DNA of 64,000 nucleotides from Diplonema papillatum (Eukaryota > Euglenozoa > Diplonemea > Diplonemida > Diplonemidae): positions 62,001-126,000 of the forward strand of contig JAPJBO010000209.1 of NCBI GenBank assembly GCA_030068145.1, read 5' to 3'. Of the stretch, positions 41,035 through 63,120 are shown one piece after another. Position 1 is the stretch's first letter. Each line of letters begins with the position of its first letter. Below the pieces are notes generated by a model. The model did not search any database, was not told the DNA's origin, and saw only the letters and a list, made by a program, of their open reading frames with translations. The position numbers and the translations under genes were made by a program.

Positions 41035-41165
41035 TGCGCCGGCCCGACGCCAACGAAATCGTCTCGCAGTGCATGCTCTTCTCCAGAAATGTCTTGCTGG
41101 TCGGATCGATCGAGGACGCGAGCCTTCTCGTAACGCACTCCATCCCCATAGATCCAGGCTTTGCT
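41035..41165 (+). pseudogene. Decayed partial copy of desulfurase exon 1
   Basis: CCGACGCCAACGAAATCGTC through TGTCTTGCTGGTCGGATCGA and CCATCCCCATAGATCCAGG repeats 41738-41915 with deletions and substitutions. It lies 260 bp upstream of the real gene. Confidence 0.85.
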
Positions 41166-41422
41166 CCCGAAGTAGATTGTCACATACCTACTACTGTCGT
41201 CATAGATTGTTGCTGCATATCAAGTAAACAAGCCAAACTACTACTAAAACAACTACCGTTATTGTTTTCATAAAGCTAGCGACTTGTGCAGTCCATCGTC
41301 ATGAATTTGCTGGTACACATCAAGTTCGATGTACGGTACTGCTACTGCAGCACCTGCTATTACAGTACCGCTACTACTTTCTACTTTATTCTTTCATATA
41401 GGACGGGAGGAGGGGTGCGGCC

Positions 41423-42307
41423 ATGGAGCGGCTGAAGGCGCTGTTTCCCGGGGAAGATGCGATGATCGAAGATGTGCTGCGGGTTGTGTCTGAGCACCAC
41501 CGGCGGAAGGCCGCCGTGCGCCCGGTCAGCTTCGACCAGGCCGCCTCTTCGGAGATGACACCCGAGGCGGTGACCGCGCAAGTCGTCGGGAACCTGCTCC
41601 TCACCGCGAACAGCAACTCGACGCACACATCCGGACAAGCCGCCCACGCCCTGTCCACCCGCCTGAAGCAAGCGGTCCTGTCCTTCGCCAACGTCCCGTC
41701 CCCCTCCGAAGCCGGCGTCCACTTCACCGACGGCGGCGCCGACGCCAACGAGTTCGTCCTGAAGTCGATGCTCCCCGTTCTCCCGCGGCGGTTGGGGGGT
41801 GGCGTCGCCAGGGATGTCTTGCTCGTCGGATCGATCGAGCACGCGAGCCTTCTGGACAGAGCCGCCGAGCTGAAATCCAGGGGTTACGTCACGCACCCCA
41901 TCCCCATAGACACAGCTACTGGCGTGTACAGCGTTCAGTACGTCAGGGAGAAGCTGGCAGAGTTCGGGGAGAGGGTTGCTTTGGTCTCGATGCACCACGC
42001 CAACAACGAAATCGGCGCCATTCAACCGCTGGCCGAAGTAGGCGCCGCCGTGCGAGAGCTCACGCCGAAGGCGCTATTCCACGCGGACTGCATCCAGACC
42101 CTGGGCAAGATCCCCATCGATTTGCCGGCGTGGCGGGCGGACGCCGTCACGCTGTCCTTCCACAAGGTCGGCGGCCCGAAGCGGACGGGAGCCGTGGTGG
42201 CGGCGAAGGCGAACAGTCTGCCAGCGGCGTTCAAAGCGACGCAAGACGTCGCTTCCCAGATCGCGTCGTGGGTCGCCGCCGCGGAGGCTGTCGGGAAGCT
42301 GGGAGAG
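41423..42307 (+). CDS. Cysteine desulfurase exon 1 (PLP domain)
   Basis: The 295 codons begin at the ATG at 41423 and follow the class V aminotransferase pattern: FTDGGADANEF (usual FTSGGTEAN), SIEHASLL, HHANNEIGAIQPL, FHADCIQTLGKIPIDL, and the PLP lysine in SFHKVGGPKRTGAVV. After that the usual GGGQE..R.GT.N loop is not recognisable, and the segment is about 20 residues shorter than normal. That loop touches PLP in related enzymes, so activity may be altered or a mini-exon may be missing. The donor is GGAGAG|GTCCGT. A poly-T run of about 20 follows directly in the intron. Confidence 0.9.
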
Positions 42308-45300
42308 GTCCGTTTTTTTTTTTTTTTTTTTTTGATACTAACAATTTTGTGCAGAGGACTTTAGCACTTTGTCTGACCGAGCAAAAAAGCCGGTTTCAGC
42401 CAAAACACCGGTTTTGGGGCTCTGCGGTGCCTGTGGGTGTCTGAGTGCCTGGGACCGTTGCCCCGCGCACGCAAACAAGGGAACGGAGGGTGGTGAGATA
42501 TAGGCTTGTGGTGGCGGTGTGCACGTCTATCAAACTACGGCGATGATGAGTGACAAGCTTCGAATAGCAGTACACACCGTGACGCGCCACAGGTACAGTA
42601 CTACAGGGGCCACTTGAAATCGAATTCTATAAATTATTTTTATTGGGAAAAATAAATTCCCTCTGGTGGAAATGGCTGGAGGAGCGTGACGATAAATTTC
42701 GTTTATTTTTTGACAGGATTCCGTTGTGTTTACACAGGCCGGACAAATAAACGAATTTATTTTTTCCGATCTCGGAATTTATTTTGCGCCGCCAGCTATT
42801 TTCAGTCGGAAGGTGGTAAATGTGCTGCAGCCCACGCGAAACACAGGTAAATCTGGGTTTAGTGGCGGGCGTAAGCGTTCAACAAAAAAGACCGACTTTT
42901 GCAGTTGTGTAGTTTTCTCCCCCTCGATCCTCCGTCGAAATGAGCGCACAGGCAGCCCCTCGAGTATTTTGTCTGCTGCTACCTTTTCTCCAAGCCCGCA
43001 CCCGACTACAGACGGCTTCGCGGTTGGAAAGCATCGGGAGCGTGTTGCTGGAAGGGATCGTGTCGCTGTGCGGCGAACTGGGCGTGACGTACCGAGTTTT
43101 GTCGTCGAAGCCGCCTGTCGGCATCCCTGGGATCGTGAACCTGCTATTCCCGGGAATGCAGGGAAGGCATGTGGTCGCGATGCTGTCGGATAAAGGGGTG
43201 AACGTGTCGAGCGGCGCCGCGTGCTCTAGTCAGAACGACGAACCGAGCAAGGTTATTTCGTCGCTGAAGGTCACTGGGGAGGACTACCACTCGGCCGTTC
43301 GGTTCTCGTTCGGGCCGTCCACCACGGAAAACGACGTCGAACGCCTCCTGTCCGCCCTGCGCGACGTGCTCACCCGGCTGTCCGGCTCGCAGACCCGCGA
43401 GCTGTCCAAGCGGAAGTACAACGAGGAGATCACTCACCGCAGCACCGGGGCGGCCGCGCCGCCCGGGCCGGCCGCCGCGGACAACCCCGCGGCCGCGAGC
43501 GCGTCGCCGGCGGAGCACGCGGACCCCGCAGGCGCGGCGGAGCCGGGGGCCAAAAAACGGAAGGAGGCACCGACCAACGAGGAGCCCCCGGCGCCCGGCA
43601 AAGCTGCGGACGCGGTGGTATGTGTTCACAGTTTCACTGCCTTGATGCACCACGAAAAAAGTCGGCAAGCGACACACAGACATTCTCACAGCCTTCAGGG
43701 TGTGGCTGGTGTCAAAGAAAAAGTCGAACTTCTTACCTGGCTTATTTTGGACCGGCAGCGTTGCTGCCCTCAAACCTCGCACTCGTGTGCTTGCTAACAA
43801 GAAAGGTAAACGGCAACCCAAGCTAGACCACTCGACTGCACAACTTGTGCCACGAAGAAGAAGAAGAAGAAAAAGAAAAAGAAAAAGGCCGCTCCTGGTC
43901 CAGGAACGTGACGGTCAACCACAGCTTGCAAAGCTTGAGTCGGAGGCAGCACAGTGCCACAACCCCGTCCGCTCTGCCCTGTGGCTGACCGTCTCGACGA
44001 GCTTGTGTTCAGCGCGAGCGCCAAGCCCCAAGGTGCGCCAAGCCTTGATGCTTTAGTTTGGGAAATCGGTAGCCACTTGACCCGTAGACCCGTGGCTCTG
44101 CAGTACCGAACACGTGAAGCTTGACTCCCGTGTAGCAGGCTTTCCCTGGTACCAAAGTAACAACTTGTGCCACGAAAGATACAAATCCCGACCCGCCATG
44201 CCGTATAAAGAACATGAGTCTGCAAAATAAAGCCGCCCGAACAATACAGGTTTCCGGGAGGGGTTTTGTCAAGTTTTTCCACCCTCCCTAACCCCCGGCG
44301 ACCTCGCCCGAGCTCGTTTCCCCGGGTTAAGGCAGCCACTCAACATTCTCTTGCGCTCGTGGCATCAGTTACTTCTCCCTTTCTTCTGGGCAGCTCTCGC
44401 CAGACTATACGAAGAGCAGAAACTCCTCCCCTCTGCCCGTCCATGGTCCAGGTCCAGGTCCAGGTTCAGGGGGGCAGGGATGAACCGGGTGGACTGTGGG
44501 ACACCGTGGTAAAACAGCGGCAGGCAATTCGATGCAGTTCCAGGGGATAGGGATCGACCGGCTAAGCTGCGTTTTTTTTTTGCACGTTTGTCAAATGGGG
44601 TTCTTGTCAAAAACGTACGTTTGCAAACATTTGGTACCATCGTCTGCCTGCAGCTAAACATACGCTGCAGGTATTCCTGCAGCTGGTGTTGCAGTCGCAG
44701 CCCAACCGCCACTTCACCTCACCATGTGTTGTAGTCGCAGCCCAACCGCCACTTCACCTCACCACTTCACGAGATGCGGCAATCGCTGTCACGTATTCAG
44801 TCACTGTCAGACAGAACAACATCCGAGACTTAACCCAGCGACCTCCACAGGGTTCATGTCCAACGGTGTTCCAGAAGCGTTTCCCTGCGTAAATATGTAG
44901 TATTCCTGGGGTGATCCACCTATTTTTTAGCACAAAAAATCACAACTTTTCGTCGTCTTGTTGCGTTAGTGGGGCAACTTTTCATAATTAGGTTTGACAC
45001 ATTGTTCTGCAGAGCTCTGCAAAGGTCTGCAAAGTTGTGCACCACGCAACAAGACGACGAAAAGTTGCCACCACCTCGACCGCCTCTGATACGACCGGCA
45101 GCTTTGACGAGCACGTCTCCGAATCCTCCTCTTCGGAACCTCAGCGTCCGCCGCTGGACCGCGGCTGCAGGGACTGCGACCTGGGCGTCCAGGACACAGC
45201 GGATCACCTGTGGTGGGTGTGCCCCGCCTACGACGAGATTCGCGGCCGTCCTTGCTTCGCCGAACTCCTGCGGGCGGACCGGGCGAGGTGGCCGTCTTGC

Positions 45301-47422
45301 ACGCGTGTGCATGGGGTTATTGTCGAAGGAATGCGGGTGGAGGTCGCGGCCCTTCACCGCCTCATGGCGGCGGTGTACACTGCACGCGTGGAGGCGGAGC
45401 GACGCCGCCTCTCCGCAGTGCAACCGATGCACCCCTGGCACGCAGCTGCGCCGCTGCCGGCGGTGCAACACCTGTTCGACTTCGACCGCCTTCCGGATGA
45501 GCCGCCGAGATGGCCGTACGGCGGCCGTGCGATGCGGGCGCTCAAGGGCTGGCTGTCGGCACTGAGGTGGACCAACGCAGGCGAGGTGTCGTGCGTTGAG
45601 CTGGCAGTGGACTTCGAGGTCCACACCGGGGTCGACGTCCCTGCCCCCCCGGGAATACGAAGGCTCGCCGCCAACCAGAGGGGGAAGACCCTCTGGACGA
45701 TGCTGTCGACATTGTGCCGCCTGTGCCAGGACCTGCAGCTGCCGTCGCCGTTGCCTGCCGAGCGGAAGGTCCGGGTGGGCTCGATGAGGACCCTGGGGGC
45801 GCCGATGCTGTGGGGGGGATTGACACCTCGCCCACGCTTCGCCGGGGGCGAGGAGACGCACGGGGTGCTGGGGACGAGCTTTCCGCGGGCAGCTGCCGGG
45901 GACGGGAAGAACTGGGGCGGGGACGTGTTCCCGCAGTACGACGCGGCGCGGCGGGCACAGCGTTCGCTGCGCTGGGACGTGCCCACCCCTCTGCCGCAAC
46001 GCCCGCGCCTTCCCGTGCTTGTACCGGCTGCGCAGGCGGACCCTCTGCTCCGCACGCAGTCGGTCTGCGATGCCTGCGCGAAGCAGAAGTGCGCGGTGTG
46101 CACTGGCATGCGAAGAAACTACAGCCTTGTAGTTGACCAGTGCTGCCAGGTGCACCACCGCCCTGACGACGGCCTGCGCATTCAGTGCTGCCGGGCGCAT
46201 CGGCTGACGCGATGTGGGACCTGCCCGAACGCCGACGCGTGCTGCGGACGGGGGCATCACAGGGGTGGTGCTGGCCGCGACGGCAGCAGTGGCGACGGGG
46301 GTGGCGGTGGTCATGGCGGCCGCGGCCGTGGCCGCGGCCGCGGCGGCCGAGGCGGCGGAGACGACAGTGACGGAGACGGTGGCGGCGGCCGCGGCACTGG
46401 TCGCGGCCGCGCACGCGGCGGCGGTCGCGGCAGCGGTCGCGGCGGGGATCGCGGCGGCGGCGGCGGTGGCGGTCGCAGCCTAGGCGAGAGCGACGGCCTC
46501 ACAGGCCGGAAGCGGCGCGCGCCGTCCCCACCTGGAACACCTACCAGCCGTGGCCGGAGGAGGCGGACGACGAAGTCGCCCCCGAAGCGCGCCCCCCCGC
46601 CAGCAGGCAGGAAGCGACCCGCGCCATGCACCCCCACGGCCTCTCCCGCAGCCGCGCTGCGCGCACGACGACGACGACGCGCCGATCTCGGCGACGACGG
46701 CACTGGCCTCGCCGGCCCGAACACACCGCGCCCACCCGGCCCCGCCCGGCCCTCTTCGATGGCAGGCCCTGACTCGGGCCCTTTTACTGATTCTGGTTCC
46801 GACCCTCCACGGGTCACACAACGATCGCGCCCTCCCGCCGGCTCTTCCCGGCTACTCGCGTCCTCCGCATCGCGGCGTGCCTACCGGCGCAAACGAGAAA
46901 GCGAAGATTCCGATTCCTTTTCGGATTATGAAATCGTCAGTAGTTTCCAAGAACAGTTGCAACCGACTAGAGTTGCGCCGCGCCGAAAGCGCGGAAAAAG
47001 TGACCCTTCTGGAGTCACGTAGCGAAAAGCTGGCATAGTGTGGTACTCATTTGCTTGCAAATGATTCCCCACTAACGCAACAAGACGACGAAAAGTTGCC
47101 ACCAACGATTTAAAAGCTACAGTTTCTGTACTTTATTGTATGTGATTTTTCTGGCAAGGGAGCGGGGGGAACACATCACGGCGATGGCGGCGCTTTCGGC
47201 GGCGCCATCGTCGATGCTCGACCGCCTCGGAGAAGCAGCGGAGCGGGCCAGCCGGGCAGCAGCGGCGGCTCGAGGCCAGAAGGAGCGAGGGGTGGCGCTG
47301 ACGCTCCTGGAGGCGGCTATCAGCCTCCTGGAGGCAGAGCAGCGGGACGAGACGAGCCAGGGGGAACCGGCGCTGTCGCAAGGACGGCCGAAGTACCAAG
47401 GCGAGGATCGTGAAGGGGCACC

Positions 47423-47463
<41 letters not shown>

Positions 47464-47499
47464 CGCAACAGCAACAGCACAGCAACAGCAGCACCGCAC

Positions 47500-47531
<32 letters not shown>

Positions 47532-50500
47532 GCAACCGCACCAGCAGCAACAGCAACAACAGCAACAGCAACCGCACCAGCAACAGCAGCGACAGCCACA
47601 ACAACAACGGCAACCGCGGCAACAGGCACAACAGCAACCACAACAACAGCAGCGACAGCAACAGAAGCAACCGCAACAGCAACAACAGCAGCAGCAACAG
47701 CACCAGCAACCGCAACAGCAGCAACAACAGCCACAGCAGCAACAGCAACCGCAACAGCAACGGCGGAACCGACCGCAACAACAAGAGCAACCGCAGCAGC
47801 GGCAACATCAGCAGTGGGTAGACGTCGTCAGACGCAAGGCGACCGTGTGCGGCGTGCACAGTTTCGACTGGAACGTGCCGATCCTCGAGTCGTGCTCATT
47901 CGAGGCGAAGAAGGAGGGGCTCTGGGTCGCACCCAGCGTCGATGAGGCCGAGACGGCGATGGGCGTGGCGGTCGATGCTGCGGCGCTGGCGACAGAGGAG
48001 GTTCGGTACGCGGTGTTGTGCCGACAGCCGTTCGAGAAGAGCGAGGCGCGCCACGTCCTCATGGAAACAGGCGTGGTGCAGCGGATGCACCTGTGGACGC
48101 ACGGGGACGTTCGGCAGGCCGGGAAGGTAGGGAAGGTCCGGCAGGCGGCGACAGAAGGCGAACAGAAGCCCGGCGCGGCCACGGCGGTGCTCGTCCTCAC
48201 CGTGGCACGCAAGCACGCGACGGCAGAGACGTGGGCATGCGTGGAGAAGGACCCGCACGCGGCGATGACGCGTCTCTGCCGCCGGGCGGTGAAGGCGACT
48301 TCGGCGCAGACGCGCCTCGAAGCGGCCTCCATGTGGGGCGTGACGTCGCAGCAGGGCCGCCGAGAGCTCCTGGTTCGCGTACCTGCGGGACACGTGGACG
48401 CCATCCTGCAGGGGTCGGGTAGGGATGGCTGCTTCTGGCGACCAGTCGGGAAGGAAGCGCGCGACGCCACGCCGGTCGTCGCATTAAATGCGGACGTGAC
48501 GCGGGAGACCGCGTTGGCGTTGTTGAAGAAGTGCGGCGAGGCCGGGGGCGGTGTCGTTCTTGGTGGAAGACGTCTTCTGCTGCGGGCGCGCGGCTCGGGG
48601 ATGCTGGCGCGCGTGCGGGCGGCTGCTGGTGAGCACGCGGCGCCCCCGCTCGAAACGAAACTGCGGTACCTCGTGTCCGGTGCCAGGGCGCGAGAACACG
48701 AGGCCGACGTCGAGATGCTGCTCAGGCTCGCTGGCTGGGCTGCGACGGTCACGACATCCTTCGTGAGAAGCGGATCGCGGACGTGCGTGGTGACGGGGGA
48801 TGGCGGCCCGCCGTTCCGCGTCATCGAAAGGGAAGGGTCGCCCTTCATTGTCGTCAACGACTACGACAAGGGCGAGATGCCGCGGCCGCGTTCTAAGCGC
48901 CTCGCCTCCTCCCTCCCGACGACGCCCGGCCAGAGGCGGCGCATGAAGCTGCCCGCCGCCGAAGTTCATACGGATCCGGAGCCGGCTCCGTCCAACAAGC
49001 GGAAGCACGAGGAGGTGACACAGCCGGCGGAAGCGGGACAGTCGCTAATCCAGCGAGCTGTGGCCGGTGTGGTCGAGATGCTGTCCCCCCCGCGCCAGCG
49101 TCTGAAGGAGCCGGTCGAGGGTGAGAAGGCCGGTCACCGGCACGAGCTGTCCGATGGAGTGCGGGCTCCAGCGGAGTTTGAATGCGGCGATTGTCAGAAG
49201 ACGATCCAGAAGGGCCGCATGCAGAGGAGGTGCGAAGAGTGCGGCGCCAGCGTGTGTGTCACGTGCTCGCGCGCCTGACTGCCGTCAAGCCACGACGCCC
49301 GCGCGGACGGCGATGCTGCGGGAGCCCGCTTGATGCGATGTGGGGATGTGCATCCCAACCCTGGCCCCGGGCGCCGAACGCTCGCCTCGACCGCCGCGGC
49401 GGCTTTCCGCCGCGGACGTCGCCGTCGGCCGGCCGGCGCAGCCCGGTACGTTGCCGCGCGTATGCTGCACCGCGCGCGGGGCGTGGGTTCCCGGGTTGCC
49501 TCGCGGCGTGAGCGTGTTGAATGTGCGTGGCTACCGTCGAAGCACGACGCCCGTGAGTATGCGTACGCCGCGGGGGAACGGCTCTTGAGGTGCGGGGACG
49601 TCCACCCGAACCCTGGTCCCCCGCGCGATCTCACTCTTGCTGCAGTCAATGTTGGCTCGCTGGCCCTGCACATTGACGAGGTGCGTGCGATGGCGCCCGC
49701 AGACGCGATTGCGGTGCTGGAGACGTCGATGGGCGAGTTGCAGCAGACGCAGGCGACGGACTATCTCGCGAGACCGTGCGCCGTCGACGGGTCGAGGTGG
49801 AAGACGCTGTGGGGGCCGCCGCAACCGCCGAAGCGCAGCAAGCACTGTCCGCACGGAAACCCGCATTCCGGGCAGAAGGGGGGAGGAGTCGTTGTGCTTG
49901 CCAGGCAGCCGGGGGTGGCCCACCTGCTGCCCAACGAATCGCTGCAGGAAGTGCGCAACCGGGTCATCCACACGATGATCGCGACGGGGGTCGGACGGAT
50001 GTTCGTACACTTCTTTGCCGTCTACGCCCCATCGGGGAACACGGCAGCGGCGTCCCGGGAGCGGCTCCTGCAGACGGTCCTCTTCGAGGCGCAGGCCATG
50101 GTGGGGCAGGCCCCGGCGGTCGTGATGGGCGACTTCAACACGGACGTTGAGCGGTCGCCGGCGCTTCGGCATGCCCTCAGCAACGGGTGGACGGACGCAG
50201 CGCAGCTGCAGGCGGCGTGCGAGGGAGGACGACCGCCCAACACCTACACGGGCACGAACACGTCCGGCACGCGCATCGACTACGCCCTGATGAACCGCGC
50301 GGCCGCGTCCGCCTTTGTTGCATGCGAGACGATCGGGGTAGGGAGCGTGAGGGGCCACCGCTGCGTCCGGATTCGACTCGCGGTGCAGGCGTTCGAACAG
50401 CAGACATGGAGGTTCAACGTGCCGCGAGCGATACCCGTGAAGCCGGCAGGTAGGGTCGTCGAGGTCCCGAGGCTGGATGCCGTGTGCGCCGCCGCCCGCG

Positions 50501-53500: not shown

Positions 53501-56500
53501 CTTCGAGGTCCACACCGGGGTCGACGTCCCTGCCCCCCCGGGAATACGAAGGCTCGCCGCCAACCAGAGGGGGAAGACCCTCTGGACGATGCTGTCGACA
53601 TTGTGCCGCCTGTGCCGAGACCTGCAGCTGCCGTCGCCGTTGCCTGCCGAGCGGAAGGTCCGGGTGGGCTCGATGAGGACCCTGGGGGCGCCGATGCTGT
53701 GGGGGGGATTGACACCTCGCCCACGCTTCGCCGGGGGCGAGGAGACGCACGGGGTGCTGGAGGCGAGCTTTCCGCGGGCAGCTGCCGGGGACGGGAAGAA
53801 CTGGGGCGGGGACGTGTTCCCGCAGTACGACGCGGCGCGGCGGGCACAGCGTTCGCTGCGCTGGGACGTGCCCACCCCTCTGCCGCAACGCCCGCGCCTT
53901 CCCGTGCTTGTACCGGCTGCGCAGGCGGACCCTCTGCTCCGCACGCAGTCGGTCTGCGATGCCTGCGCAAAGCAGAAGTGCGCGGTGTGCACTGGCATGC
54001 GAAGAAACTACAGCCTTGTAGTTGACCAGTGCTGCCAGGTGCACCACCGCCCGGACGACGGCCTGCGCATTCAATGCTGCCGGGCGCATCGGCTGACGCG
54101 ATGCGGGACCTGCCCGAACGCCGACGCGTGCTGCGGACGGGGGCATCACAGGGGTGGTGCTGGCCGCGACAGCAGCAGTGGCGACGGGGGTGGCGGTGGT
54201 CATGGCGGCCGCGGCCGTGGCCGCGGCCGCGGCGGCCGGGGCGGCGGAGACGACAGTGGCGGAGACGGTGGCGGCGGCCGCGGCACTGGTCGCGGCCGCG
54301 CACGCGGCGGCGCACGCGGTGGCGGTCGCGGCGGCGGCGGCGGTGGCGGTCGCGGCGAGAGCGACGGCCTCACAGGCCGGAAGCGGCGCGCGCCGTCCCC
54401 ACCGGGGACACCTACCAGCCGTGGCCGGAGAAGGCGGACGACGAAATCGCCCCCGAAGCGCGCCCCCCCGCCAGCAGGCAGGAAGCGACCCGCGCCTTGC
54501 ACCCCCACGACCTCTCCCGCAGCCGCGCTGCGCGCACGACGACGACGACGCGCCGATCTCGGCGACGACGGCACTGGCCTCGCCGGCCCGAACACACCGC
54601 GCCCACCCGGCCCCGCCCGGCCCTCTTCGATGGCAGGCCCTGACTCGGGCTCTTTTTCTGATTCTGGTTCCGACCCTCCACGGGTCACACAACGAACGCG
54701 CCCTCCCGCCGGCTCTTCCCGGCTACTCACGTCCTCCGCATCGCGGCGTGCCTATCGGCGCAAACGAGAAAGCGAAGACTCCGATTCCTTTTCGGATTAT
54801 GAAATCGTGAGCAAGTTTCCAAGAACAGTTGCAACCGACTAGAGTTGCGCCGCGCCGAAAGCGCGGAAAAAGTGACCCTTCTGGAGTCACGTAGCGAAAA
54901 GCTGGCATAGTGTGGTACTCATTTGCTTGCAAATGACTCCCCACTAACGCAACAAGACGACGAAAAGTTGTGATGCCTGCGCAAAGCAGAAGTGCGCGGT
55001 GTGCACTGGCATGCGAAGAAACTACAGCCTTGTAGTTGACCAGTGCTGCCAGGTGCACCACCGCCCGGACGACGGCCTGCGCATTCAATGCTGCCGGGCG
55101 CATCGGCTGACGCGATGCGGGACCTGCCCGAACGCCGACGCGTGCTGCGGACGGGGGCATCACAGGGGTGGTGCTGGCCGCGACAACAGCAGTGGCGACG
55201 GGGGTGGCGGTGGTCATGGCGGCCGCGGCCGTGGCCGCGGCCGCGGCGGCCGGGGCGGCGGAGACGACAGTGGCGGAGACGGTGGCGGCGGCCGCGGCAC
55301 TGGTCGCGGCCGCGCACGCGGCGGCGCACGCGGTGGCGGTCGCGGCGGCGGCGGCGGTGGCGGTCGCGGCGAGAGCGACGGCCTCACAGGCCGGAAGCGG
55401 CGCGCGCCGTCCCCACCGGGGACACCTACCAGCCGTGGCCGGAGAAGGCGGACGACGAAGTCGCCCCCGAAGCGCGCCCCCCCGCCAGCAGGCAGGAAGC
55501 GACCCGCGCCATGCACCCCCACGGCCTCTCCCGCAGCCGCGCTGCGCGCACGACGACGACGACGCCCGATCTCGGCGACGACGGCACTGGCCTCGCCGGC
55601 CCGAACACACCGCGCCCACCCGGCCCCGCCCGGCCCTCTTCGATGGCAGGCCCTGACTCGGGCTCTTTTTCTGATTCTGGTTCCGGCCCTCCACGGGTCA
55701 CACAACGAACGCGCCCTCCCGCCGTCTCTTCCCGGCTACTCACGTCCTCCGCATCGCGGCGTGCCTATCGGCGCAAACGAGAAAGCGAGGACTCCGATTC
55801 CTTTTCGGATTATGAGATCGTGAGCAACTGCCAACAACAGTTGCAACCGACTAGAGTTGCGCCGCGCCGAAAGCGCGGAAAAAGTGACCCTTCTGGAGTC
55901 ACGTAGCGAAAAGCTGGCATAGTGTGGTACTCATTTGCTTGCAAATGACTCCCCACTAACGCAACAAGACGACGAAAAGTTGTGAAAAGTTGTGAATTGA
56001 TTTGGAATTCTGTGATTCTTTCTGCTAGAAAATAGGTGGATCGCCCCAATTCCAACCGATGTCACACCTATTTAGCCCGAACACGACAGAACGGCGCAGC
56101 GGCGAGCGAGCAGGGCAATAGCAAGGACAAGGGCAACGGCAAAGGCAACCGCTCGACAGAATGGCGGTCGAAGGGACAATACACAACCAGGAAGGAGAAG
56201 CGGGCGGCCGCGCAGCCAGCCCCGGTGAAGCACCCCGAGACGATCGACTTCGGATCGCCCGAGGACGTAGCTGCCGCCTTCAAGCAAGCAGCGGACGCGG
56301 CGGCCGCAGGTAGCAAAGCCTTTCTTTTCTTGAAAGTATGCCAATACTGCAGGGAATAGTTGACTAGACCTCTTGAGTTTGTGCTAACCACGAATTGAGG
56401 AGTCGGGAGAACCTACAAAGCCAAAAGCAGGACCGACCCCCCCCGTTCGTGAGAAAAAGCGAAGAATAAAAGCACCTTCTTTTTTCCATCTATCTTTGTC

Positions 56501-59500
56501 AAGAGCTGCAACTCAACTATTCTCGATCGTACATCTGTACTGATGGGAACATTTCCGGAGCATAGGTTGCACATGAAACAGCCAACGAAAAAATGCTCAT
56601 ACAGGAAACCTCTCCGAGAGAGGTTTATCCCTGTGCACGCGAAGAACAAGAAACCTTTGCCTTATCATTTCTATCACTCATGGTCAGTTGATGCTGATCG
56701 TCCGTTACTTCGTTTATCAGTGCAAGCCCCAACTTCGGAAATGTTCTGAGTTAACATGCTGAGCTAACACTTGCTGTGGTTTGATTGAAAAGCAGAATCT
56801 ATCGGGAAGACGGCACCGGCCAAGCAACCATCAGAAACGAACAAACAGTTGCTGTCACGCGTAAAGCCACGCGGGTGATGTCACTCCGTCGTGTAACTTT
56901 GAAATGTCCCCTAGCTGAGCCGGTCCATCCCCTCTTGATAAACCATGATAGACCGAAGAATACAGCACCGGGCAATTCGATGCAGCTCTAGGGACTAGGG
57001 ATGGACCTGATAGACCGTGGTGGACTAGGGATGGACCTGATAGACCGTGGTGGAGCGTGATTCACTGCGATAAACAGCGGCAGGCACTTCGTTGCAGTTT
57101 CAAGAGATAGGGACGGACCGGCTCAGCTAACGCGTTCAAGGCGCCAAGCTCTGGCTTTCGGCTACGTTCGTTCACAAGTTGCAATACCATGCGAGCGAAC
57201 GTTCACTTGAAACTCCAGAGTTTCAGAGCCTCCGGATGACTTTCGACAAATGGGGATATTCTTCAAATGCTGAAATACACAGCAGGCGTTGGACGTTGCG
57301 ACGCGGTGATGGTCACATTCGGCGAGCTGGTGCTGAAGGGGGCCAACCGGAAAGCGTTCGAAAAGAAGCAAGTGTACAACTTGCGGCGGAAGCTCGACTC
57401 CGACCCGGCGACGCAGGACCTCATCATGTGGACCCCGCAAGGGTACCCCCAGGCAGGCTTTCTGCTCCTGTTCTTCATCCGCCAGGAAGATGTCCCGAAA
57501 GGAGGCCTCGACGCGACCTCGAAGGTCTCTCGCGTCCCGATGCCTGCCAGGAGAATTCGCTCCGACGTGTGCAACCTCCCCCCTCTCCCCTACCGATTGT
57601 AATTAAACTTGGAATCCGAAATTGAACGTTGACTACCAATTCTAATTAAGGGTTTGCGGGTTTGCGGGTTTGGGATTTGGCATCAGACGTTGACTACCGG
57701 TTGTAATTAAATTTGGATCCGAATCTCCTGTCCTAGTCGGGCTGTTTTTTGTGGCTTGCGGTTTGGGTTTTCGGTGTTTTCCCTTAAGGAATTGCCTGGA
57801 GAGCGCTATCAAGACGAGCGAGAAGAGGCGGAATCATGATGCATCACGTGCGAAGAAATAACAGCAATGCCGGTGATGCAGATTATCGCAACAGATTCTT
57901 CGCAATCCAACCCAAACTATCACGGGTCTATCAGGGAGGAGACGAACCGGCAGTAGTTGGCAGCGTACTACATAAGGCAGGTGAGTTCCGCAAACCAAGT
58001 TAAAAGAGGCGGATGCTCAAACTTTGCAAGCTGCGTTTTGTTGGGGGCGGCACATCTGCTCACAATAGCGCAGGTGTCCCAAGGCAAGCTCGGTGTCGAC
58101 GTTCTTGACCTGAAAGCACTGTACACATATTCTGGCACGTGCGTCGCTCCGTGCTGTTCAGTTGAGCACAGCACTGCTATTCCCACCCTCCTATTCGTGC
58201 ACTCATGCACAGAACAGCAGCCCTGCTCAGCATGAACACTCTGCCTGCGTACTTGCGCCTACACCCGCCACTGAACCCAGGTTTACCTGTGGCTACAGCA
58301 CATTTACCTCCTTTGATCTATCGCAACTGGCAGTCTCCTCAAGCATTTCCTACAAAGCAGGTGCATATAGAAAAATATGCCTTCGCTCTTTCGCTTTCCT
58401 TTCAAAACTGTTGCGTTGACGCATCCACACCTGCCTTGTTCTCTTTCCTTTTTTGTGTACGCTTTTTTTTTTTTTTTTTTTTTTTTGAGCAGGCCGAGTT
58501 CCAGGCCTCTCTTCAGGTTGTTCTTCTTCTTTTTCACCTGGTACGTCTTGAGTTAGGGATCTCCATGTGAAGCACGGACAAGTAAACTGTGACAGTGACA
58601 TGAAACTGCAGTTTGGTGTTGGTTCGCTCATTGCTCAGGCTTACATTTTTGGAACACATTGCAATGTCTCGAAAGATAAAAAGTACATCACCCTCCCCTG
58701 AAAGACTGTATTGTTGTGGCGGGTTTTCCGTTCCAGCCACGGTTCTCGGTGTAGCACGTGTAGCGCTCTTCGCGGTTGCAGACTGCAGAGCAGTACTAAT
58801 AACGTCGTAAACAATCGAAAACGCAGGAGTACGAGACGGTGCTTAAGCTGCTGAAGGAGGTGTCCGGCCTGCTCACAATCGTGCCCGTCCTGATGGCGCC
58901 GCCCAAATGGGACTCGCTCCGGCAGCGGGTGTTCGAGTCGTTCAGCCGGCACTACCGAAGGGCAATCGCGGCGGATCCCGCGCTCGCGGCCGTCCCGTTC
59001 GGAGTGCGCGCACGCCGCGGTGACAAGGCGTTCCCGATTGGGGCAGAGGAGATCAACCGCGTCCTCGGGAGCAACCTGGTGTGGCTTTTTTTTTTGTCGT
59101 ATAAGACGCTAGTCTTAGAAGATTAATATTAACCGACTAATGATATACTGTGAAACAGGGCCTCTCGCTCCATCACACAACCGCTCACGCTCTTGCTTAC
59201 TCACCATCCCGCCCCCTAGCTTTCCGTGTCCTGAGGCGCCACGATGGAAATGTGGCAAACACACGAAGATCATTAACAGTTGGTTCGTTTCTACTTACCC
59301 TTTTACGCAGCGGCACTGAGACTGGAGCTAATTGCAGCACGAGACGCACACCAAGGAGGAGAATATTAACACAAGCGCCAGCTTGAAAGGAAATGCTCGA
59401 CAATGCTGCCCGACAAAGAACAGAAGGGATCCCGAGTGCTGTAACTACCGAACCACGTGTTGAACGGACGTGAGGTCATGCGGGTCTACCCCCTACACGA

Positions 59501-62053
59501 CAAATCACACAAACACAACAGGTCAAAGTCCTGAGTGAGAAAGCAACAAACGGTGGTGTAAGCGAAGAACAAATCAGATTGTGACAAAATGACGCATGTG
59601 ACCCACATGACCAAGATGACCTATCCGAAATAACCCACATGACGCACGTGACCCGTGTAGCCCGTATGACACACATGACCCGATGACGCACGTGACCCGT
59701 GTAGCCCATATGACGCACATGACCCAAATGACGCACGTGACCCGTGTAACCCATATGACACACATGACCCATATGACGCACGTGACCCGTGTAGCCCATA
59801 TGACGCACATGACCCAAAAGACGCACGTGATCCGTGTAGGCCATATGACGCACATGACCCAAATGACGCACGTGACCCGTGTAGCCCATATGACGCACAT
59901 GACCCAAATGACGCACGTGACCCGTGTAACCCATATGACACACATGACCCAAATGACGCACGTGACCCGTGTAGCCCATATGACGCACATGACCCAAATG
60001 ACGCACGTGATCCGTGTAGGCCATATGACGCACATGACCCAAATGACGCACGTGACCCGTGTAGCCCATATGACGCACATGACCCAAATGACGCACGTGA
60101 CCCGTGTAGGCCATATGACGCACATGACCCAAATGACGCACGTGACCCGTGTAGCCCACATGACACACATGACCCAAATGACGCACGTGACCCGTGTAGC
60201 CCATATGACGCACATGACCCAAATGACGCACGTGATCCGTGTAGGCCATATGACGCACATGACCCGTGTAGCTGACGCAGATGACTCAAACGATTTATAT
60301 GACCCATAATACCGCCGAACAGCTGATAAATTGGTGCTAACGCATTATATGCAAACCGAACTAATACAGGTGCGTAGCACACAACTGCTGGAGTACAAGG
60401 TGCCCCTGGTGGTGAATCTCAAGAAGCCATTGGTCCACATTGAAGTATGCTTTGCCTGTTTGGCTCATTGAGCCGATGTGGTTCATCCGACGTCCGTGCA
60501 AGTACCGCCCTTGACGGTGGAAAAAAAGGACATCACCCTCCCCTGAAAGACTGCATTGTTGTGGCGGGGTTTCCGTTCCAGCCACGGTTCTCGGTAGCAC
60601 GTGTAGGAGAAGGCGGCTTGCCTTCGGCCGTCGACGACAACGCGATGCTGTCGGGTACGACTCGCCGGTCGCCTGCCGCAAGATGATGCGCACGTCTCGT
60701 TCGTGCACTTCGACTGGCACCCCTCATCGCTGCAACCGCTTGTATCCACCCATGCCATACCCCCGCCTCAACGGTCGACCGGAGACTCAAAAACACCGGC
60801 TTCTTGAACTGAAAGCAGTCATATAACAAGGTTGCTGTAGGTGAACCTGCAACAGCATCATGACCAACTATTTCATCTCCGGAAGAAACGAGGAAACGAC
60901 TTTTTGGAAGAAAGTTGAAAGTTCCGAACACAAGCAATATTATCGAAACCAACACTCTGAAAACTGTCCAACACAACAGGTGCGCGTGCGGCAGGACGTG
61001 ACACTAGTCTTTGTGTCCGGCGACGTGGAACGCGGAGAAGGCGGCTTGCCTTCGGCCGTCGACGACAACGCGAAGGTGCTGGGCCTGCTGTCCGGCGGGC
61101 ACGACTCGCCGGTCGCCTGCCACAAGATGATGCGGCGGGGCTGCCACGTCTCGTTCGTGCACTTCGACGGGTACCCCTACGTCGGCCGCGAGGTGGTGCT
61201 CAAGATACGGAAGATCCAAGGCGTTCTCAACCGGTACCAGGAGCCCGCGGGCAGGCTCTTCGTCGTTCCGTTCGCGAAGATACAGGAGACGATCGTAGAC
61301 ACAGCCGGCGTCAGCCCGAGCTACCGGACGGTGTTGTACAGAGTGTACATGTTCAGACTGTCGCAAATGGTGGCAGCAAAGCACGGGTTTCGGGCGCTTT
61401 GCACGGGGGACAACTTGGGCCAAGTGGCGAGCCAGACTCTCAGCAACATGGCGACACTCGACGGCTACTCGGACCTGTTCACCGCCCGGCCGCTGGTCAC
61501 TTCGGCGAAGGACGCGATCATCGCGGACTGCGAGAAGCTCGGGTTCTACGAGTACACGAAGCTCTACGGCACCGCCGACTGCTGCACGGTGTTCCAACCG
61601 AGCAACCCGGTGCTGCACGTGCAGAAGGAGGCGCTGGCGCGGGCTGTCGCGAGGCTCGACGAGGCCGGCATGCAAGCCGTGCTGCAGGAAGCGTTCGCTG
61701 GCCGGACCATCTACGACGGCAGCGACGACAAGGACCTGATCCTGCCGGCTGTCCCGACCCCACCCCAGGCGTGTCCGTTCGTTCCGAAGCAAAGCAGGCA
61801 AGCGGCCGCAACCGCGGGAAACCCCAACGAAGCGCTCAAACCGAACCAAGAGCAAGACGCCCCCATGGCCGCCGCTGCTGCTGAAGAGGTTTCCAAGCAG
61901 AACACGAAACAAGACACTCCCATCACGGCCACGAACAACCACGAGCAAGACACTCCCATGGCCACTGCTGAGGAGGCTTCCAAGCAAGAGGCAGATCTCA
62001 AGAGCAAGCAAGACACCCCTATGGCTGCTGTTGGCGACGAAGATGCAAGGTAG
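41423..62053 (+). CDS. Proposed cysteine desulfurase-ThiI fusion gene
   Basis: The exons are 41423-42307, 43012-43617, 56090-56309, 57286-57442, one unresolved small exon, then 58827-59078, 60370-60444 and 60980-62053. The first two encode a NifS-type desulfurase, the third a Lys/Ala/Gly-rich linker, and the rest a ThiI with THUMP region and PP-loop domain. The junctions 42307|43012 and 43617|56090 are phase 0/0, and 56309|57286 is phase 1/1, giving a Gly codon. The only mismatch is 57442 (phase 2) to 58827 (phase 0), so at least one exon of length 3n+1 is missing, where the THUMP region is also short by about 20 residues. In bacteria a desulfurase hands sulfur to ThiI for 4-thiouridine at tRNA position 8. 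The alternative is two genes: the desulfurase reading through to a stop at 43797, and ThiI starting at the ATG at 57267. Confidence 0.6.
42308..43011 (+). other. Intron within desulfurase region
   Basis: This 704-bp GT-AG intron holds a poly-T tract at 42312-42332. It also holds an inverted piece (42843-42888) of the repeat found upstream of the aminotransferase gene. Confidence 0.85.
43012..43617 (+). CDS. Cysteine desulfurase exon 2 (catalytic Cys) and linker
   Basis: After the acceptor CCGACTACAG the frame gives VNLLFPGMQGRHVVAMLSD and GVNVSSGAACSSQNDEPSKV, which contains the active-site Cys of desulfurases. RFSFGPSTTENDVERLL follows, ending the fold. About 75 further residues are Ala/Pro-rich with a Lys patch (AKKRKE), unlike a normal desulfurase end. 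A good donor GCGGTG|GTATGT lies at 43618. Without splicing, the frame would continue 60 codons through non-coding-looking sequence to 43797. Confidence 0.88.
44300..44575 (+). repeat. Mixed repeat fragments
   Basis: 44300-44420 matches the family at 22471-22560 and 22833-22950. 44497-44570 is the 3' portion of MITE family A (CAGCGGCAGGCAATTCGATG, then GATCGACCGGCT). Neither is complete. Confidence 0.7.
45076..47022 (+). CDS. LINE ORF2 C-terminal part (copy 1)
   Basis: The frame carries CRDCDLGVQDTADHLWWVC, the C..C...H....C motif common near the end of LINE ORF2 proteins. A region with VAALHRLMAAVYTARVEAER follows, then a Cys/His-rich block (CDACAKQKCAVCTG to CCGRGHHRGG). Next come an RGG-type low-complexity tract, an Arg-rich segment, an acidic stretch (RESEDSDSFSDYE) and a basic end. 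A tail of this length beyond the usual finger is unusual. This copy has lost the endonuclease and RT. Confidence 0.8.
   Translation, partial: STASDTTGSFDEHVSESSSSEPQRPPLDRGCRDCDLGVQDTADHLWWVCPAYDEIRGRPCFAELLRADRARWPSCTRVHGVIVEGMRVEVAALHRLMAAVYTARVEAERRRLSAVQPMHPWHAAAPLPAVQHLFDFDRLPDEPPRWPYGGRAMRALKGWLSALRWTNAGEVSCVELAVDFEVHTGVDVPAPPGIRRLAANQRGKTLWTMLSTLCRLCQDLQLPSPLPAERKVRVGSMRTLGAPMLWGGLTPRPRFAGGEETHGVLGTSFPRAAAGDGKNWGGDVFPQYDAARRAQRSLRWDVPTPLPQRPRLPVLVPAAQADPLLRTQSVCDACAKQKCAVCTGMRRNYSLVVDQCCQVHHRPDDGLRIQCCRAHRLTRCGTCPNADACCGRGHHRGGAGRDGSSGDGGGGGHGGRGRGRGRGGRGGGDDSDGDGGGGRGTGRGRARGGGRGSGRGGDRGGGGGGGRSLGESDGLTGRKRRAPSPPGTPTSRGRRRRTTKSPPKRAPPPAGRKRPAPCTPTASPAAALRARRRRRADLGDDGTGLAGPNTPRPPGPARPSSMAGPDSGPFTDSGSDPPRVTQRSRPPAGSSRLLASSASRRAYRRKRESEDSDSFSDYEIVSSFQEQLQPTRVAPRRKRGKSDPSGVT
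45076..47074 (+). mobile_element. LINE copy 1, 5'-truncated
   Basis: The copy starts at TCGACCGCCTCTGATACG, internal to ORF2, and ends ...CCCCACTA. It is flanked by T plus CCACC on both sides (45044-45072 and 47075-47103), a 29-bp target duplication. It is nearly identical to copy 2 over this stretch, so it is recent. Confidence 0.9.
47184..49278 (+). CDS. LINE ORF1 with poly-Gln tract and C-terminal zinc motif
   Basis: The likely start is the ATG at 47184. Its frame encodes a helical N-terminal segment (MLDRLGEAAERASRAAAAAR, then LTLLEAAISLLEAE) and enters a CAG/CAA tract. The rest of ORF1 (VDVVRRKATVCGVHSFDW onward) lies in another frame after the tract, so a length change in the repeat has shifted this copy. 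The middle is probably nucleic-acid binding, but I see no RRM signature. The C terminus FECGDCQKTIQKGRMQRRC to CVTCSRA has six or more Cys in a treble-clef-like arrangement. The stop is TGA 49276-49278, in the same frame as the downstream 2A modules and ORF2. Confidence 0.75.
47426..47812 (+). repeat. CAG/CAA/CCG-rich tract in LINE ORF1
   Basis: The tract is built from CAGCAACAG-like triplets with interspersed CCGCAA and CACCAG. It is open in several frames (poly-Gln, poly-Thr/Ala, poly-Asn/Ser), so non-triplet slippage can change the ORF1 frame without a stop. Confidence 0.93.
49279..49368 (+). other. 2A-like module 1
   Basis: Directly after the ORF1 TGA and in frame, 30 codons end in RCGDVHPNPGP. 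Ribosome-skipping 2A peptides have the consensus D(V/I)ExNPGP; here His replaces the Glu. An ATG (49333) lies inside the module, only three codons before the Asp-Val. Confidence 0.75.
49531..49620 (+). other. 2A-like module 2
   Basis: This repeats module 1 exactly 252 bp (84 codons) downstream. The pattern is LPS-x-HDAR, four variable residues, AAG-x-RL-x-RCGDVHPNPGP. It ends immediately before the endonuclease domain (TLAAVNVGSLAL), the place where a cleavage would release an ORF2 enzyme. Confidence 0.75.
49621..54842 (+). pseudogene. LINE ORF2: APE endonuclease, RT and C-terminal tail (frameshifted)
   Basis: Endonuclease motifs are AAVNVGSL, AVLETSMGE, VMGDFNTDVE, SGTRIDYALMN and SVRGHR, all intact in one frame. 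RT motifs are LIPKTDDTSPTNLRPI, QHGFRSG, VALDFAKCFDRVP and, in another frame, SLADDATLFA, which has the Asp-Asp pair. Frames change near 51560, 51835, 51880, 52100 and 52380. The C-terminal frame to 54842 has CRDCDRGVQDTADHLWWEC and the Cys-rich/RGG tail seen in copy 1. The enzyme would nick target DNA and prime reverse transcription from the nick. This copy cannot encode it whole. Confidence 0.88.
54972..55958 (+). mobile_element. LINE copy 3, strongly 5'-truncated
   Basis: It begins within the Cys-rich tail (GATGCCTGCGCAAAGCAG) and ends CCCCACTA. T plus TG flanks both sides (54947-54972 and 55959-55984). One triplet-scale and one single-base difference from copy 2 lie in the Arg-rich part. 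Confidence 0.9.
56090..56309 (+). CDS. Linker exon joining desulfurase and ThiI
   Basis: Between acceptor ACACGACAG and donor GCCGCAG|GTAGCA lie 73 codons plus one base. They encode a Gly/Lys/Ser-rich hydrophilic start (NGAAASEQGNSKDKGNGKGN) and a helical end (SPEDVAAAFKQAADAAAA). There is no recognised domain. The incoming phase (0) fits the desulfurase donor at 43618, and the outgoing phase (1) fits the ThiI acceptor at 57285. The frame has no start codon after the acceptor, so it is not a first coding exon by itself. Confidence 0.65.
56530..56655 (+). repeat. Dispersed repeat R4, copy 2
   Basis: It shares GGGAACATTTCCGGAGCATA and CATACAGGAAACC...AGAGAGGTTTATCCCTG with the copy before the large ORF (35505). 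It lies in the intron after the linker exon. Confidence 0.75.
56917..57124 (+). mobile_element. MITE family A, copy 4
   Basis: The ends GAGCCGGTCCATCCC and the inverse of GGGACGGACCGGCTC are flanked by AGCT on both sides, a likely 4-bp target duplication. An internal 30-bp piece (GGTGGACTAGGGATGGACCT) is duplicated. Confidence 0.88.
57286..57442 (+). CDS. ThiI exon a (N-terminal/THUMP start)
   Basis: CDAVMVTFGELVLKGANRKA matches the start of ThiI (IRFGEISTKGKNR in Bacillus subtilis), a conserved segment of the ferredoxin-like domain. VYNLRRKL follows. The acceptor is ACAGCAG. The most likely donor is CCGCAAGG|GTACCC. If ThiI were separate, the ATG at 57267 in the same frame could be its start. 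Confidence 0.85.
57443..58826 (+). other. Intron region with an unresolved ThiI exon
   Basis: Family alignment needs roughly 15-25 residues between exons a and b, and the phases require an exon of 3n+1 bases. One candidate is a short exon after GCGCAG at 58075 with a donor at TCG|GTGTCG, but its sequence is not convincing. Repeats at 58288-58362 and a poly-T at 58466-58487 are also here. Confidence 0.5.
58827..59078 (+). CDS. ThiI exon b (THUMP domain)
   Basis: Eighty-four codons after acceptor AAACGCAG begin EYETVLKLLKEVSGLLTIVP, which corresponds to the RLKQVFGI region of bacterial ThiI. They continue with FGVRARRGDKAFPIGAEEIN, the THUMP RNA-binding segment. The donor is AACCTG|GTGTGG, phase 0. 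Confidence 0.88.
59372..59580 (+). repeat. Dispersed repeat R1, copy
   Basis: It contains CAATGCTGCCCGACAAAGAA, GTTGAACGGACGTGAGGTCA and CAACAGGTCAAAGTCCTGAG, and abuts the 45-bp minisatellite. Confidence 0.82.
59585..60285 (+). repeat. 45-bp minisatellite in ThiI intron
   Basis: About 15 units combine GACGCACGTGACCCGTGTAG, CCCATATGACGCACATGACC and CAAATGAC. The unit is 15 codons and free of stops on both strands, which creates long meaningless open frames. Confidence 0.96.
60370..60444 (+). CDS. ThiI exon c
   Basis: Twenty-five codons between CTAATACAG and ATTGAA|GTATGC encode YKVPLVVNLKKPLVHIE. This matches the strand before the PP-loop domain (VDVRRPDIELHVEV in B. subtilis). Both ends are phase 0. 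Confidence 0.88.
60525..60722 (+). pseudogene. Decayed copy of the start of ThiI exon d, inside the intron
   Basis: 60607-60722 repeats 61035-61180 (GAAGGCGGCTTGCCTTCGGC) with deletions that destroy the PP-loop. The preceding 80 bp (CATCACCCTCCCCTGAAAGA) repeats 58672-58755. Confidence 0.85.
60824..60862 (+). other. 18S rRNA 3'-end-like scrap
   Basis: TAACAAGGTTGCTGTAGGTG followed by AACCTGC and ATCAT resembles the universal end of small-subunit rRNA (TAACAAGGTTTCCGTAGGTG, AACCTGCGGAAGGATCAT) with about seven mismatches in 39 bases. It is in the intron before ThiI exon d. Confidence 0.6.
60980..62053 (+). CDS. ThiI exon d (PP-loop catalytic domain, C terminus)
   Basis: After acceptor CACAACAG the frame gives the PP-loop LLSGGHDSPVACHKMMRRGC, which binds and adenylates with ATP. 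VHFDGYPY, TGDNLGQVASQTLSNM and TADCCTVFQPSNP follow; the last holds the Cys pair aligned with the catalytic Cys of bacterial ThiI. There is no rhodanese domain, as in B. subtilis ThiI. Beyond the fold are about 90 residues of acidic/Lys repeats (KQDTP, HEQDTPMATAEEASKQE) of unknown role. The stop is TAG 62051-62053. The motif GATGCAAGGTAG at the end is repeated at the end of both downstream partial copies. Confidence 0.92.
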   Translation: MRVRQDVTLVFVSGDVERGEGGLPSAVDDNAKVLGLLSGGHDSPVACHKMMRRGCHVSFVHFDGYPYVGREVVLKIRKIQGVLNRYQEPAGRLFVVPFAKIQETIVDTAGVSPSYRTVLYRVYMFRLSQMVAAKHGFRALCTGDNLGQVASQTLSNMATLDGYSDLFTARPLVTSAKDAIIADCEKLGFYEYTKLYGTADCCTVFQPSNPVLHVQKEALARAVARLDEAGMQAVLQEAFAGRTIYDGSDDKDLILPAVPTPPQACPFVPKQSRQAAATAGNPNEALKPNQEQDAPMAAAAAEEVSKQNTKQDTPITATNNHEQDTPMATAEEASKQEADLKSKQDTPMAAVGDEDAR

Positions 62054-62082
62054 AACGACTCGACGGCTAACTGGTCACTTCG

Positions 62083-62885: not shown

Positions 62886-62894
62886 GAGCAAACT

Positions 62895-63120
62895 TCCGGC
62901 ACCCCAGGCGTGTCCGTTCGTTCCGAAGCACAGCAGGCAAGCCAACCTCACAGCCGCAACCGCGGGAAACCCCGACGAAGTGCTCAAACCGAACAACCAA
63001 GAGCAAAACGCCCCCATGGCCACTGCTGAGGAGGCTTCCAAACAAGAGGCAAGCAAGCAGCGCTGCAAGAGCAAGCACGACACTCCTGTGGTTGCTGTTG
63101 GCGACGAAGATGCAAGGTAG
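62895..63120 (+). pseudogene. Partial copy 2 of ThiI 3' end
   Basis: It starts inside the CCCAGGCGTGTCCGTTCGTT segment and covers only the low-complexity tail, again ending GATGCAAGGTAG. Frames are broken relative to the gene. A further scrap (GGCAAGACACTTCGATGGCC) lies near 63311. Confidence 0.85.

What the first reader, a model, noticed from the sequence alone, without database searches (positions are those of the whole stretch)
41423..62053. Cysteine desulfurase and ThiI may be one fused sulfur-relay protein
The desulfurase exons end in a charged linker at a good donor (43618, phase 0). The next spliceable exon (56090-56309) has no start codon of its own and begins in phase 0. It leaves in phase 1, which is exactly what the first ThiI exon at 57286 needs. 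The two enzymes are consecutive partners in bacterial 4-thiouridine synthesis, so a fusion would channel persulfide directly to the tRNA-modifying site. I do not know of such a fusion being described, but could not search for one.
Basis: partly seen in the sequence, partly recalled or inferred. Interest (0 to 1): 0.93.

Follow-up and report, generated by a model that had tools for sequence, protein, structure and literature searches.

The report
Fused sulfur-to-tRNA enzyme in diplonemids
A marine flagellate encodes, as one protein, the enzyme that takes sulfur from cysteine and the enzyme that puts sulfur into tRNA, which bacteria make as two separate partners; seven related proteins share the fusion, which hints that these eukaryotes make a tRNA modification otherwise known from bacteria and archaea.

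Summary
The fusion is real. Seven exons (41423–62053, six GT–AG introns) translate letter for letter into a deposited 1130-aa "putative tRNA sulfurtransferase" of Diplonema papillatum with Aminotran_5, ThiI ferredoxin-like, THUMP and ThiI (PP-loop) domains. Seven more proteins carry desulfurase and ThiI in the same order; four have transcript-assembly names. Both halves form one fully supported clade, which fits one old fusion. The linker exon and phases were read correctly. The "missing exon" does not exist: the first ThiI exon runs to 57566, not 57442. An unmentioned exon lies at 60370–60444. The catalytic residues checked are kept in 8 of 8; no rhodanese domain was found. Adjacent bacterial desulfurase–thiI genes have the same order. 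Most likely the protein passes persulfide directly to tRNA U8, making s4U. Activity, target and compartment are untested, and a conserved stretch near the PLP site is lost in 8 of 8. Two 2017 reviews call s4U8 unreported or absent in eukaryotes. My searches listed no paper on this fusion. A new variant of a known two-enzyme pathway.

The parts
41400..41401 (+). AG after a T-rich stretch, 21 nt before the ATG; possible 5' (spliced-leader) acceptor
   Evidence: sequence; the alternative model P0007 reads on from 41402; trans-splicing itself is inferred from recalled knowledge of diplonemids
41423..42307 (+). exon 1: N-terminal extension and first part of class I cysteine desulfurase (aa 1-295), incl. 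H140, D222, Q225, H247 and PLP lysine K248
   Evidence: PF00266 E 5e-27 on 41423-42310; alignment to E. coli IscS
43012..43617 (+). exon 2: rest of desulfurase with persulfide cysteine C366, and first part of the charged linker (aa 296-497)
   Evidence: PF00266 E 9.4e-08 on 42985-43617
43618..56089 (+). intron 2, 12,472 nt, with retroelement-like sequence
   Evidence: GT-AG; of five long ORFs scanned (four of them in this intron) one, 49279-51669, matches Pfam: PF03372, E 4.1e-14; repeated blocks 45076-47098 / 52965-54970 (97%) and 53955-54973 / 54969-55985 (99%)
56090..56309 (+). exon 3: linker exon (aa 498-571), phase 0 in, phase 1 out; its end lies in a predicted helix
   Evidence: resembles the linkers of P0002-P0004; helix 554-570 in the model
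57286..57566 (+). exon 4: start of ThiI ferredoxin-like domain (aa 571-664); donor after 57566, not 57442
   Evidence: PF22025 E 5.5e-07 on 57288-57599
58827..59078 (+). exon 5: probably the rest of the ferredoxin-like domain, then start of THUMP (aa 665-748)
   Evidence: PF02926 match over aa 721-785 of P0001; no Pfam hit on this exon alone
   Evidence: PF02926 match over aa 721-785
60980..62053 (+). exon 7: end of THUMP, PP-loop (ThiI) domain with SGGHDSP and DCCTVF (C974/C975), low-complexity tail, stop (aa 774-1130)
   Evidence: PF02568 E 1.2e-49 on 60980-62050; alignment to 2c5s and 4kr6

Best explanation
One nuclear gene encodes a single protein: class I (IscS/NifS-type) cysteine desulfurase, a charged disordered linker, then a ThiI without rhodanese domain (ferredoxin-like, THUMP, PP-loop). 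Proposed action: the front half forms a persulfide on C366 with PLP on K248; the sulfur passes directly to the PP-loop half (most likely C975, equivalent to Cys344 of E. coli and T. maritima ThiI), which adenylates U8 of the tRNA bound by its ferredoxin-like and THUMP domains, giving s4U8. This is the two-enzyme NifZ-ThiI pathway of Bacillus in one chain. Shown here: gene structure, domain order, conservation of catalytic residues, occurrence in eight proteins. Inferred: direct transfer, the accepting cysteine, U8 as target, activity. The fusion probably arose once, before the sampled lineages diverged.
For: The 7-exon model equals P0001 exactly. Eight proteins with both domains; P0002, P0003, P0005 and P0006 have Trinity names. 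Positions of IscS H104, N154, D180, Q183, H205, K206, C328 and R354 kept in 8 of 8; ThiI SGGxDSP, DCC and TGDNxGQVASQT in 8 of 8. No rhodanese match in 8 of 8 at E 0.001. The fused rows form one clade (100/100) in both domain trees, and P0005/P0006 split first in both, the other six together with 96/94 and 90/93 support. One ThiI match in the genome, in this gene. A desulfurase gene lies directly upstream of thiI in L016, L017, L018 (annotated) and L019 (adjacent ORFs). In B. subtilis NifZ and ThiI are both needed (PMC5372739) and together sufficient (PMC4041423, PMC5372745) for s4U8 (passages).
Against: No expression, activity or tRNA data. P0001 is a gene model of the same genome, so it is no independent proof of the splicing. 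Another model, P0007, takes only exon 1 of this gene and joins it to the upstream ORF. The GGx[QH][EQ]..R[SA]GT stretch is absent in 8 of 8 fused proteins and present in 6 of 6 references; only its threonine is kept. All 8 fall below the TIGR00342 cut-off and below each desulfurase cut-off listed. THUMP passes its Pfam cut-off in 4 of 8. Even in B. subtilis the sulfur-accepting cysteine of ThiI was not identified (passages of PMC4041423 and PMC5372745). The active-site distance cannot be judged from the model.
Confidence: 0.75

Rival explanations
1. Two separate genes; the linker exon and splice phases match by accident and annotation merged them.
For: 12.5-kb gap with retroelement-like sequence; an in-frame ATG at 57267 just upstream of the ThiI exon (sequence); P0007 splits the gene.
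Against: Four proteins with transcript-assembly names and three from ENA contigs carry the two domains in one chain; the linker exon resembles the linkers of three of seven relatives.
Confidence: 0.02
2. The fusion is real but serves another sulfur acceptor, such as the thiamine thiazole, instead of tRNA U8.
For: Diplonemids are reported able to make thiamine (passage of PMC7052976); ThiI has a thiamine role besides tRNA (passage of PMC9957541).
Against: The ferredoxin-like domain passes its cut-off in 6 of 8 and THUMP in 4 of 8. The rhodanese domain, which I recall as the part of E. coli ThiI needed for thiazole, was not found. Searches of the genome for ThiG and THI4 did not complete, so this rival is not tested.
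Confidence: 0.12
3. The fusion is real and s4U is made, but the desulfurase half is inactive or a docking platform and another desulfurase supplies the sulfur.
For: The GGx[QH][EQ]..R[SA]GT stretch is lost in 8 of 8; other PF00266 proteins exist in the genome (12 matched stretches, one being exon 1 of this gene; 12 of 42 candidates scored).
Against: All eight catalytic positions checked, including lysine and persulfide cysteine, are kept in 8 of 8.
Confidence: 0.1

Closest known systems
Bacillus subtilis NifZ-ThiI pair
   Same: Desulfurase plus rhodanese-less ThiI, sufficient together; nifZ immediately upstream of thiI (passages of PMC5372739, PMC4041423, PMC5372745). Same gene order in L016-L019
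   Different: Two proteins in a bacterium; here one chain in a eukaryote. The desulfurase half is 24-31% identical to four thiI-adjacent enzymes and 25-29% to NifS and IscS, so it is not clearly a NifZ
E. coli IscS-ThiI
   Same: Same chemistry expected, equivalent catalytic residues in the desulfurase half
   Different: E. coli ThiI has a rhodanese domain with Cys456 (passage of PMC5372739); none found here
Bacterial desulfurase-rhodanese fusion (CD-Rhd, Pseudorhodoferax)
   Same: Natural fusion of a desulfurase with its sulfur acceptor, shown to be bifunctional (abstract passages and section 4 of PMC8931425)
   Different: The acceptor is a rhodanese domain, not a tRNA-modifying enzyme
Plant ABA3 (desulfurase with MOSC domain)
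   Same: Eukaryotic desulfurase fused to a downstream sulfur-using domain (passage of PMC8931425)
   Different: Linked to molybdenum cofactor, not tRNA

Membership tests
ThiI (tRNA uracil 4-sulfurtransferase) | PP-loop ThiI domain | tested here: met
   PF02568 above cut-off in 8 of 8
ThiI (tRNA uracil 4-sulfurtransferase) | N-terminal ferredoxin-like domain | tested here: met
   PF22025 above cut-off in P0001-P0006 (6 of 8, the window's protein included); no hit in P0008, P0009
ThiI (tRNA uracil 4-sulfurtransferase) | THUMP domain | tested here: inconclusive
   PF02926 above cut-off in 4 of 8 (P0001, P0002, P0003, P0005), just below in P0004 and P0006, none in P0008 and P0009
ThiI (tRNA uracil 4-sulfurtransferase) | catalytic cysteine equivalent to Cys344 | tested here: met
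   DCC in 8 of 8; second C aligns with the cysteine of 4kr6 (T. maritima)
ThiI (tRNA uracil 4-sulfurtransferase) | NCBIfam TIGR00342 curated score | tested here: not met
   0 of 8 reach 264.5 bits; scores 168.0-244.7
ThiI (tRNA uracil 4-sulfurtransferase) | makes s4U8 in tRNA | not testable with these tools
   needs tRNA analysis
class I cysteine desulfurase (IscS/NifS) | aminotransferase class V fold and PLP lysine | tested here: met
   PF00266 in 8 of 8; lysine in 8 of 8; model matches IscS/NifS structures with TMt about 0.8-0.9
class I cysteine desulfurase (IscS/NifS) | persulfide cysteine in its SxGxAC loop | tested here: met
   8 of 8
class I cysteine desulfurase (IscS/NifS) | GGx[QH][EQ]..R[SA]GT stretch (pattern defined here from the references) | tested here: not met
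   0 of 8 fused, 6 of 6 references; only the threonine is kept. A bare GGx[QH] occurs elsewhere in P0002-P0004
class I cysteine desulfurase (IscS/NifS) | NCBIfam curated scores of the IscS, NifS and related models | tested here: not met
   All desulfurase models listed for the 8 proteins score below their cut-offs
NifZ (ThiI-dedicated desulfurase) | specific relation to thiI-adjacent bacterial desulfurases | tested here: inconclusive
   Identities overlap with those to NifS/IscS; best NCBIfam model is NF002806 or TIGR03402, and neither is specific to thiI-adjacent enzymes; the tree keeps the fused clade apart from all six references

The most novel reading that the evidence does not exclude
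Diplonemids, a species-rich group of marine eukaryotes, make 4-thiouridine at tRNA position 8 with a single-chain cysteine-to-tRNA sulfur conveyor that needs no carrier and no rhodanese domain: an s4U of a eukaryote, with a sulfur route of its own apart from the mitochondrial desulfurase (which I did not identify in this genome), and possibly a near-UV sensor as in bacteria.
Probability: 0.5. Interest if true: 0.85.

Novelty: new variant of a known kind. Interest (0 to 1): 0.72.

Why it matters
[quoted passage not shown] This gene is a concrete candidate in a eukaryote described as genetically tractable (start of the abstract of PMC8611851 in the listing). How rhodanese-less ThiI handles its sulfur was called unanswered (passage of PMC5372739); a natural single-chain version fixes the partners one to one and suits structural work and persulfide tracing.

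Tried and rejected
Separate-gene reading: set aside because of the fused proteins with transcript-assembly names. Missing exon: rejected. Origin from a bacterial desulfurase-thiI operon: the gene order fits, but both trees keep the fused clade on its own long branch, identities do not single out thiI-adjacent enzymes, and family scores do not either, so it stays a guess. Fused copies on plasmids: 0 of 289 matching plasmid records had one place covering 80% of P0001; the seven best-ranked rows join hits to both halves, at adjacent genes in those I looked at (4 of 7). Nearest standalone ThiI: 7631 hits among 7999 scored candidates, best 120 listed, none of these 120 marked EukProt; of the 10 with an organism name 7 are Planctomycetota/Planctomycetes, 1 Victivallaceae, 1 Lentisphaeria and 1 only 'bacterium'; 5 of the 120 went into the tree. 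A profile search for more distant fusions returned 6 proteins, all known already, and did not return P0005, P0006 and P0009, so these searches (about 7994 candidates scored each) are not exhaustive. The prokaryote genome scan gave 2 archaeal ThiI loci; I listed their ORFs but did not annotate the neighbours. Fold model: mean pLDDT 68.7, pTM 0.44, residues 434-546 unordered; matches to ThiI structures have rmsd about 15-16 A, so domain placement is unsure. MnmA (PF03054) gave 0 matches, 2 candidates scored, exon by exon. ThiG (PF05690), THI4 (PF01946) and rhodanese (PF00581) searches of the genome did not complete. Two literature hits checked in passages and found unrelated: rhodanese-ThiI in archaea, CysH-SufS fusion.

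Full report
What is there. The window is part of a 271-Mb assembly. Its gene product is identical to a deposited protein of Diplonema papillatum, 1130 aa, named "putative tRNA sulfurtransferase" (P0001), from which I take the organism. I joined seven exons, 41423–42307, 43012–43617, 56090–56309, 57286–57566, 58827–59078, 60370–60444 and 60980–62053; the translation equals P0001 letter for letter and all six introns are GT–AG. Pfam finds Aminotran_5, the ThiI ferredoxin-like domain, THUMP and ThiI in that order.

The jump from the desulfurase to the linker exon, and from there to the ThiI exon, is right in place and phase. The supposed donor at 57442 is not used: the exon stays open to 57566 and joins 58827 in phase 0, so no exon is missing. 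A small exon, 60370–60444, was not mentioned.

More than one protein. A search of about 5.8 billion proteins (7994 candidates scored) returned nine; eight have both Aminotran_5 and ThiI in one chain. The ninth, P0007, is another model of this same locus that takes only exon 1 and joins it to the upstream ORF. Of the eight, P0002, P0003, P0005 and P0006 bear Trinity names, which I read as assembled transcripts; P0004, P0008 and P0009 come from ENA contigs without a species name. That the seven others are diplonemids is an inference; the prefix Hpha of P0005 I read, from memory, as Hemistasia phaeocysticola. P0002 begins at the position of P0001 residue 45, and P0009 ends a few residues after the catalytic cysteine, so some models are incomplete. 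In trees of each half the eight form one clade (100/100), and P0005/P0006 split from the other six in both; that six-row branch has 96/94 support in the ThiI tree and 90/93 in the desulfurase tree, and the order within the six is unresolved in the first. The references were few (12 non-fused ThiI, 6 desulfurases), so one fusion event is likely but the donor lineage is open.

The linker. The peptide of the linker exon aligns with the linkers of P0002, P0003 and P0004 so that 11, 21 and 24 of 2000 shuffles score as high; P0006 and P0009 are borderline (74 and 76), P0005 and P0008 show nothing (1752 and 1758). The AlphaFold2 model (8 sequences, mean pLDDT 68.7) leaves residues 434–546 unordered and puts a helix at 554–570. 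Foldseek matches one part to IscS/NifS structures (TMt about 0.8–0.9) and another to the ThiI structures 2c5s, 4kr7 and 4kr6 (TMt about 0.5, rmsd about 15–16 Å).

Is it competent? Positions equal to E. coli IscS H104, N154, D180, Q183, H205, K206, C328 and R354 are kept in 8 of 8 (the roles of these residues are recalled). The stretch GGx[QH][EQ]..R[SA]GT, present in 6 of 6 references, is gone in 8 of 8 except for its threonine; as I recall, it lies by the PLP phosphate of the partner subunit. This is the main structural oddity and an argument for caution. In the ThiI half SGGHDSP (histidine where the five references have I or F), TGDNxGQVASQT and DCCTVF are kept in 8 of 8. The second cysteine of DCC aligns with the catalytic one of T. 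maritima ThiI (role from passages of PMC4041423). Three cysteines are invariant in this half, C828, C974 and C975, and no invariant CxxC of the archaeal Fe–S type is seen. No rhodanese domain was found. Against a plain filing as ThiI or IscS: none of the eight reaches the NCBIfam cut-off of TIGR00342 or of any desulfurase model listed.

How it most likely works. In B. subtilis the desulfurase NifZ and a rhodanese-less ThiI are needed (PMC5372739) and sufficient (PMC4041423, PMC5372745) for s4U8, and nifZ lies immediately upstream of thiI (passages). I found the same order in plasmid records of Paenibacillus, Monoglobus and Anoxybacillus (annotated) and as adjacent ORFs in Acetoanaerobium; their ThiI proteins of about 390–400 aa are too short for an added rhodanese domain, judged by length. 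The diplonemid protein has the same two parts, in the same order, in one chain. The simplest reading is direct persulfide transfer from C366 to the ThiI half, probably C975, within the chain or across a dimer (T. maritima ThiI acts as a dimer; passage of PMC9957541), and s4U8 as product. This step is inferred; even in B. subtilis the accepting cysteine was not identified. The N-terminal extension carries acidic residues and shows no obvious mitochondrial signal by eye; a cytosolic site is a guess.

Other genes. PF02568 has one match in the genome, in this gene, so the fused protein is the only detectable ThiI; a six-frame search can miss genes cut by introns. PF00266 gives 12 matched stretches, one of them exon 1 of this gene, with 12 of 42 candidates scored; among the rest are frames that look, by eye, like a SufS-type and a selenocysteine-lyase-like enzyme. 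PF03054 (MnmA) gave no match. Searches for ThiG, THI4 and rhodanese did not complete.

What is in print. Nine text searches on this topic (open-access PMC papers only, and only part of the matching papers listed) listed no paper whose title or abstract start describes a desulfurase–ThiI fusion. The diplonemid genome paper PMC10161547 and the diplonemid mitochondrial proteome paper PMC12699882 hold none of ThiI, thiouridine, desulfurase or sulfurtransferase in their main text (word search; supplements not seen). The protein itself is deposited, so its existence is public. The closest described fusions I met are desulfurase–rhodanese in bacteria and desulfurase–MOSC in plants (PMC8931425).

The locus. 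Intron 2 holds an ORF with an endonuclease/exonuclease/phosphatase domain, the only one of five long ORFs scanned that matched Pfam (the fifth lies upstream of the gene), and long near-identical blocks; with the reverse-transcriptase-like reading that I see by eye in the same ORF, it looks like decayed non-LTR retroelement sequence. Decayed partial copies of exons 1 and 7 lie beside and inside the gene.

Noticed in passing
62084-63133: Several diverged tandem partial copies of the end of exon 7 lie just downstream of the stop (e.g. 62084-62436, 95% identical to 61528-61877); the first ones fall in a stop-free frame 61740-62876 that overlaps exon 7 in another frame.
   Followed up: partly
60606-60724 and 41080-41128: Short decayed copies of exon 7 (79% identical, in intron 6) and of exon 1 (90% identical, upstream of the gene).
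   Followed up: partly
59633-60265: Tandem array of a 45-base unit, about 14 copies, inside intron 5.
   Followed up: no
43618-56089: 12.5-kb intron with retroelement-like sequence; an ORF has an endonuclease/exonuclease/phosphatase domain, reverse-transcriptase-like reading was seen by eye only.
   Followed up: partly
35647-39552: Long open frame upstream with no Pfam match; the gene model P0007 joins much of it to exon 1 of the desulfurase.
   Followed up: no
whole genome assembly: No exon-level match to MnmA (PF03054) in the 271-Mb assembly; introns may hide it.
   Followed up: no
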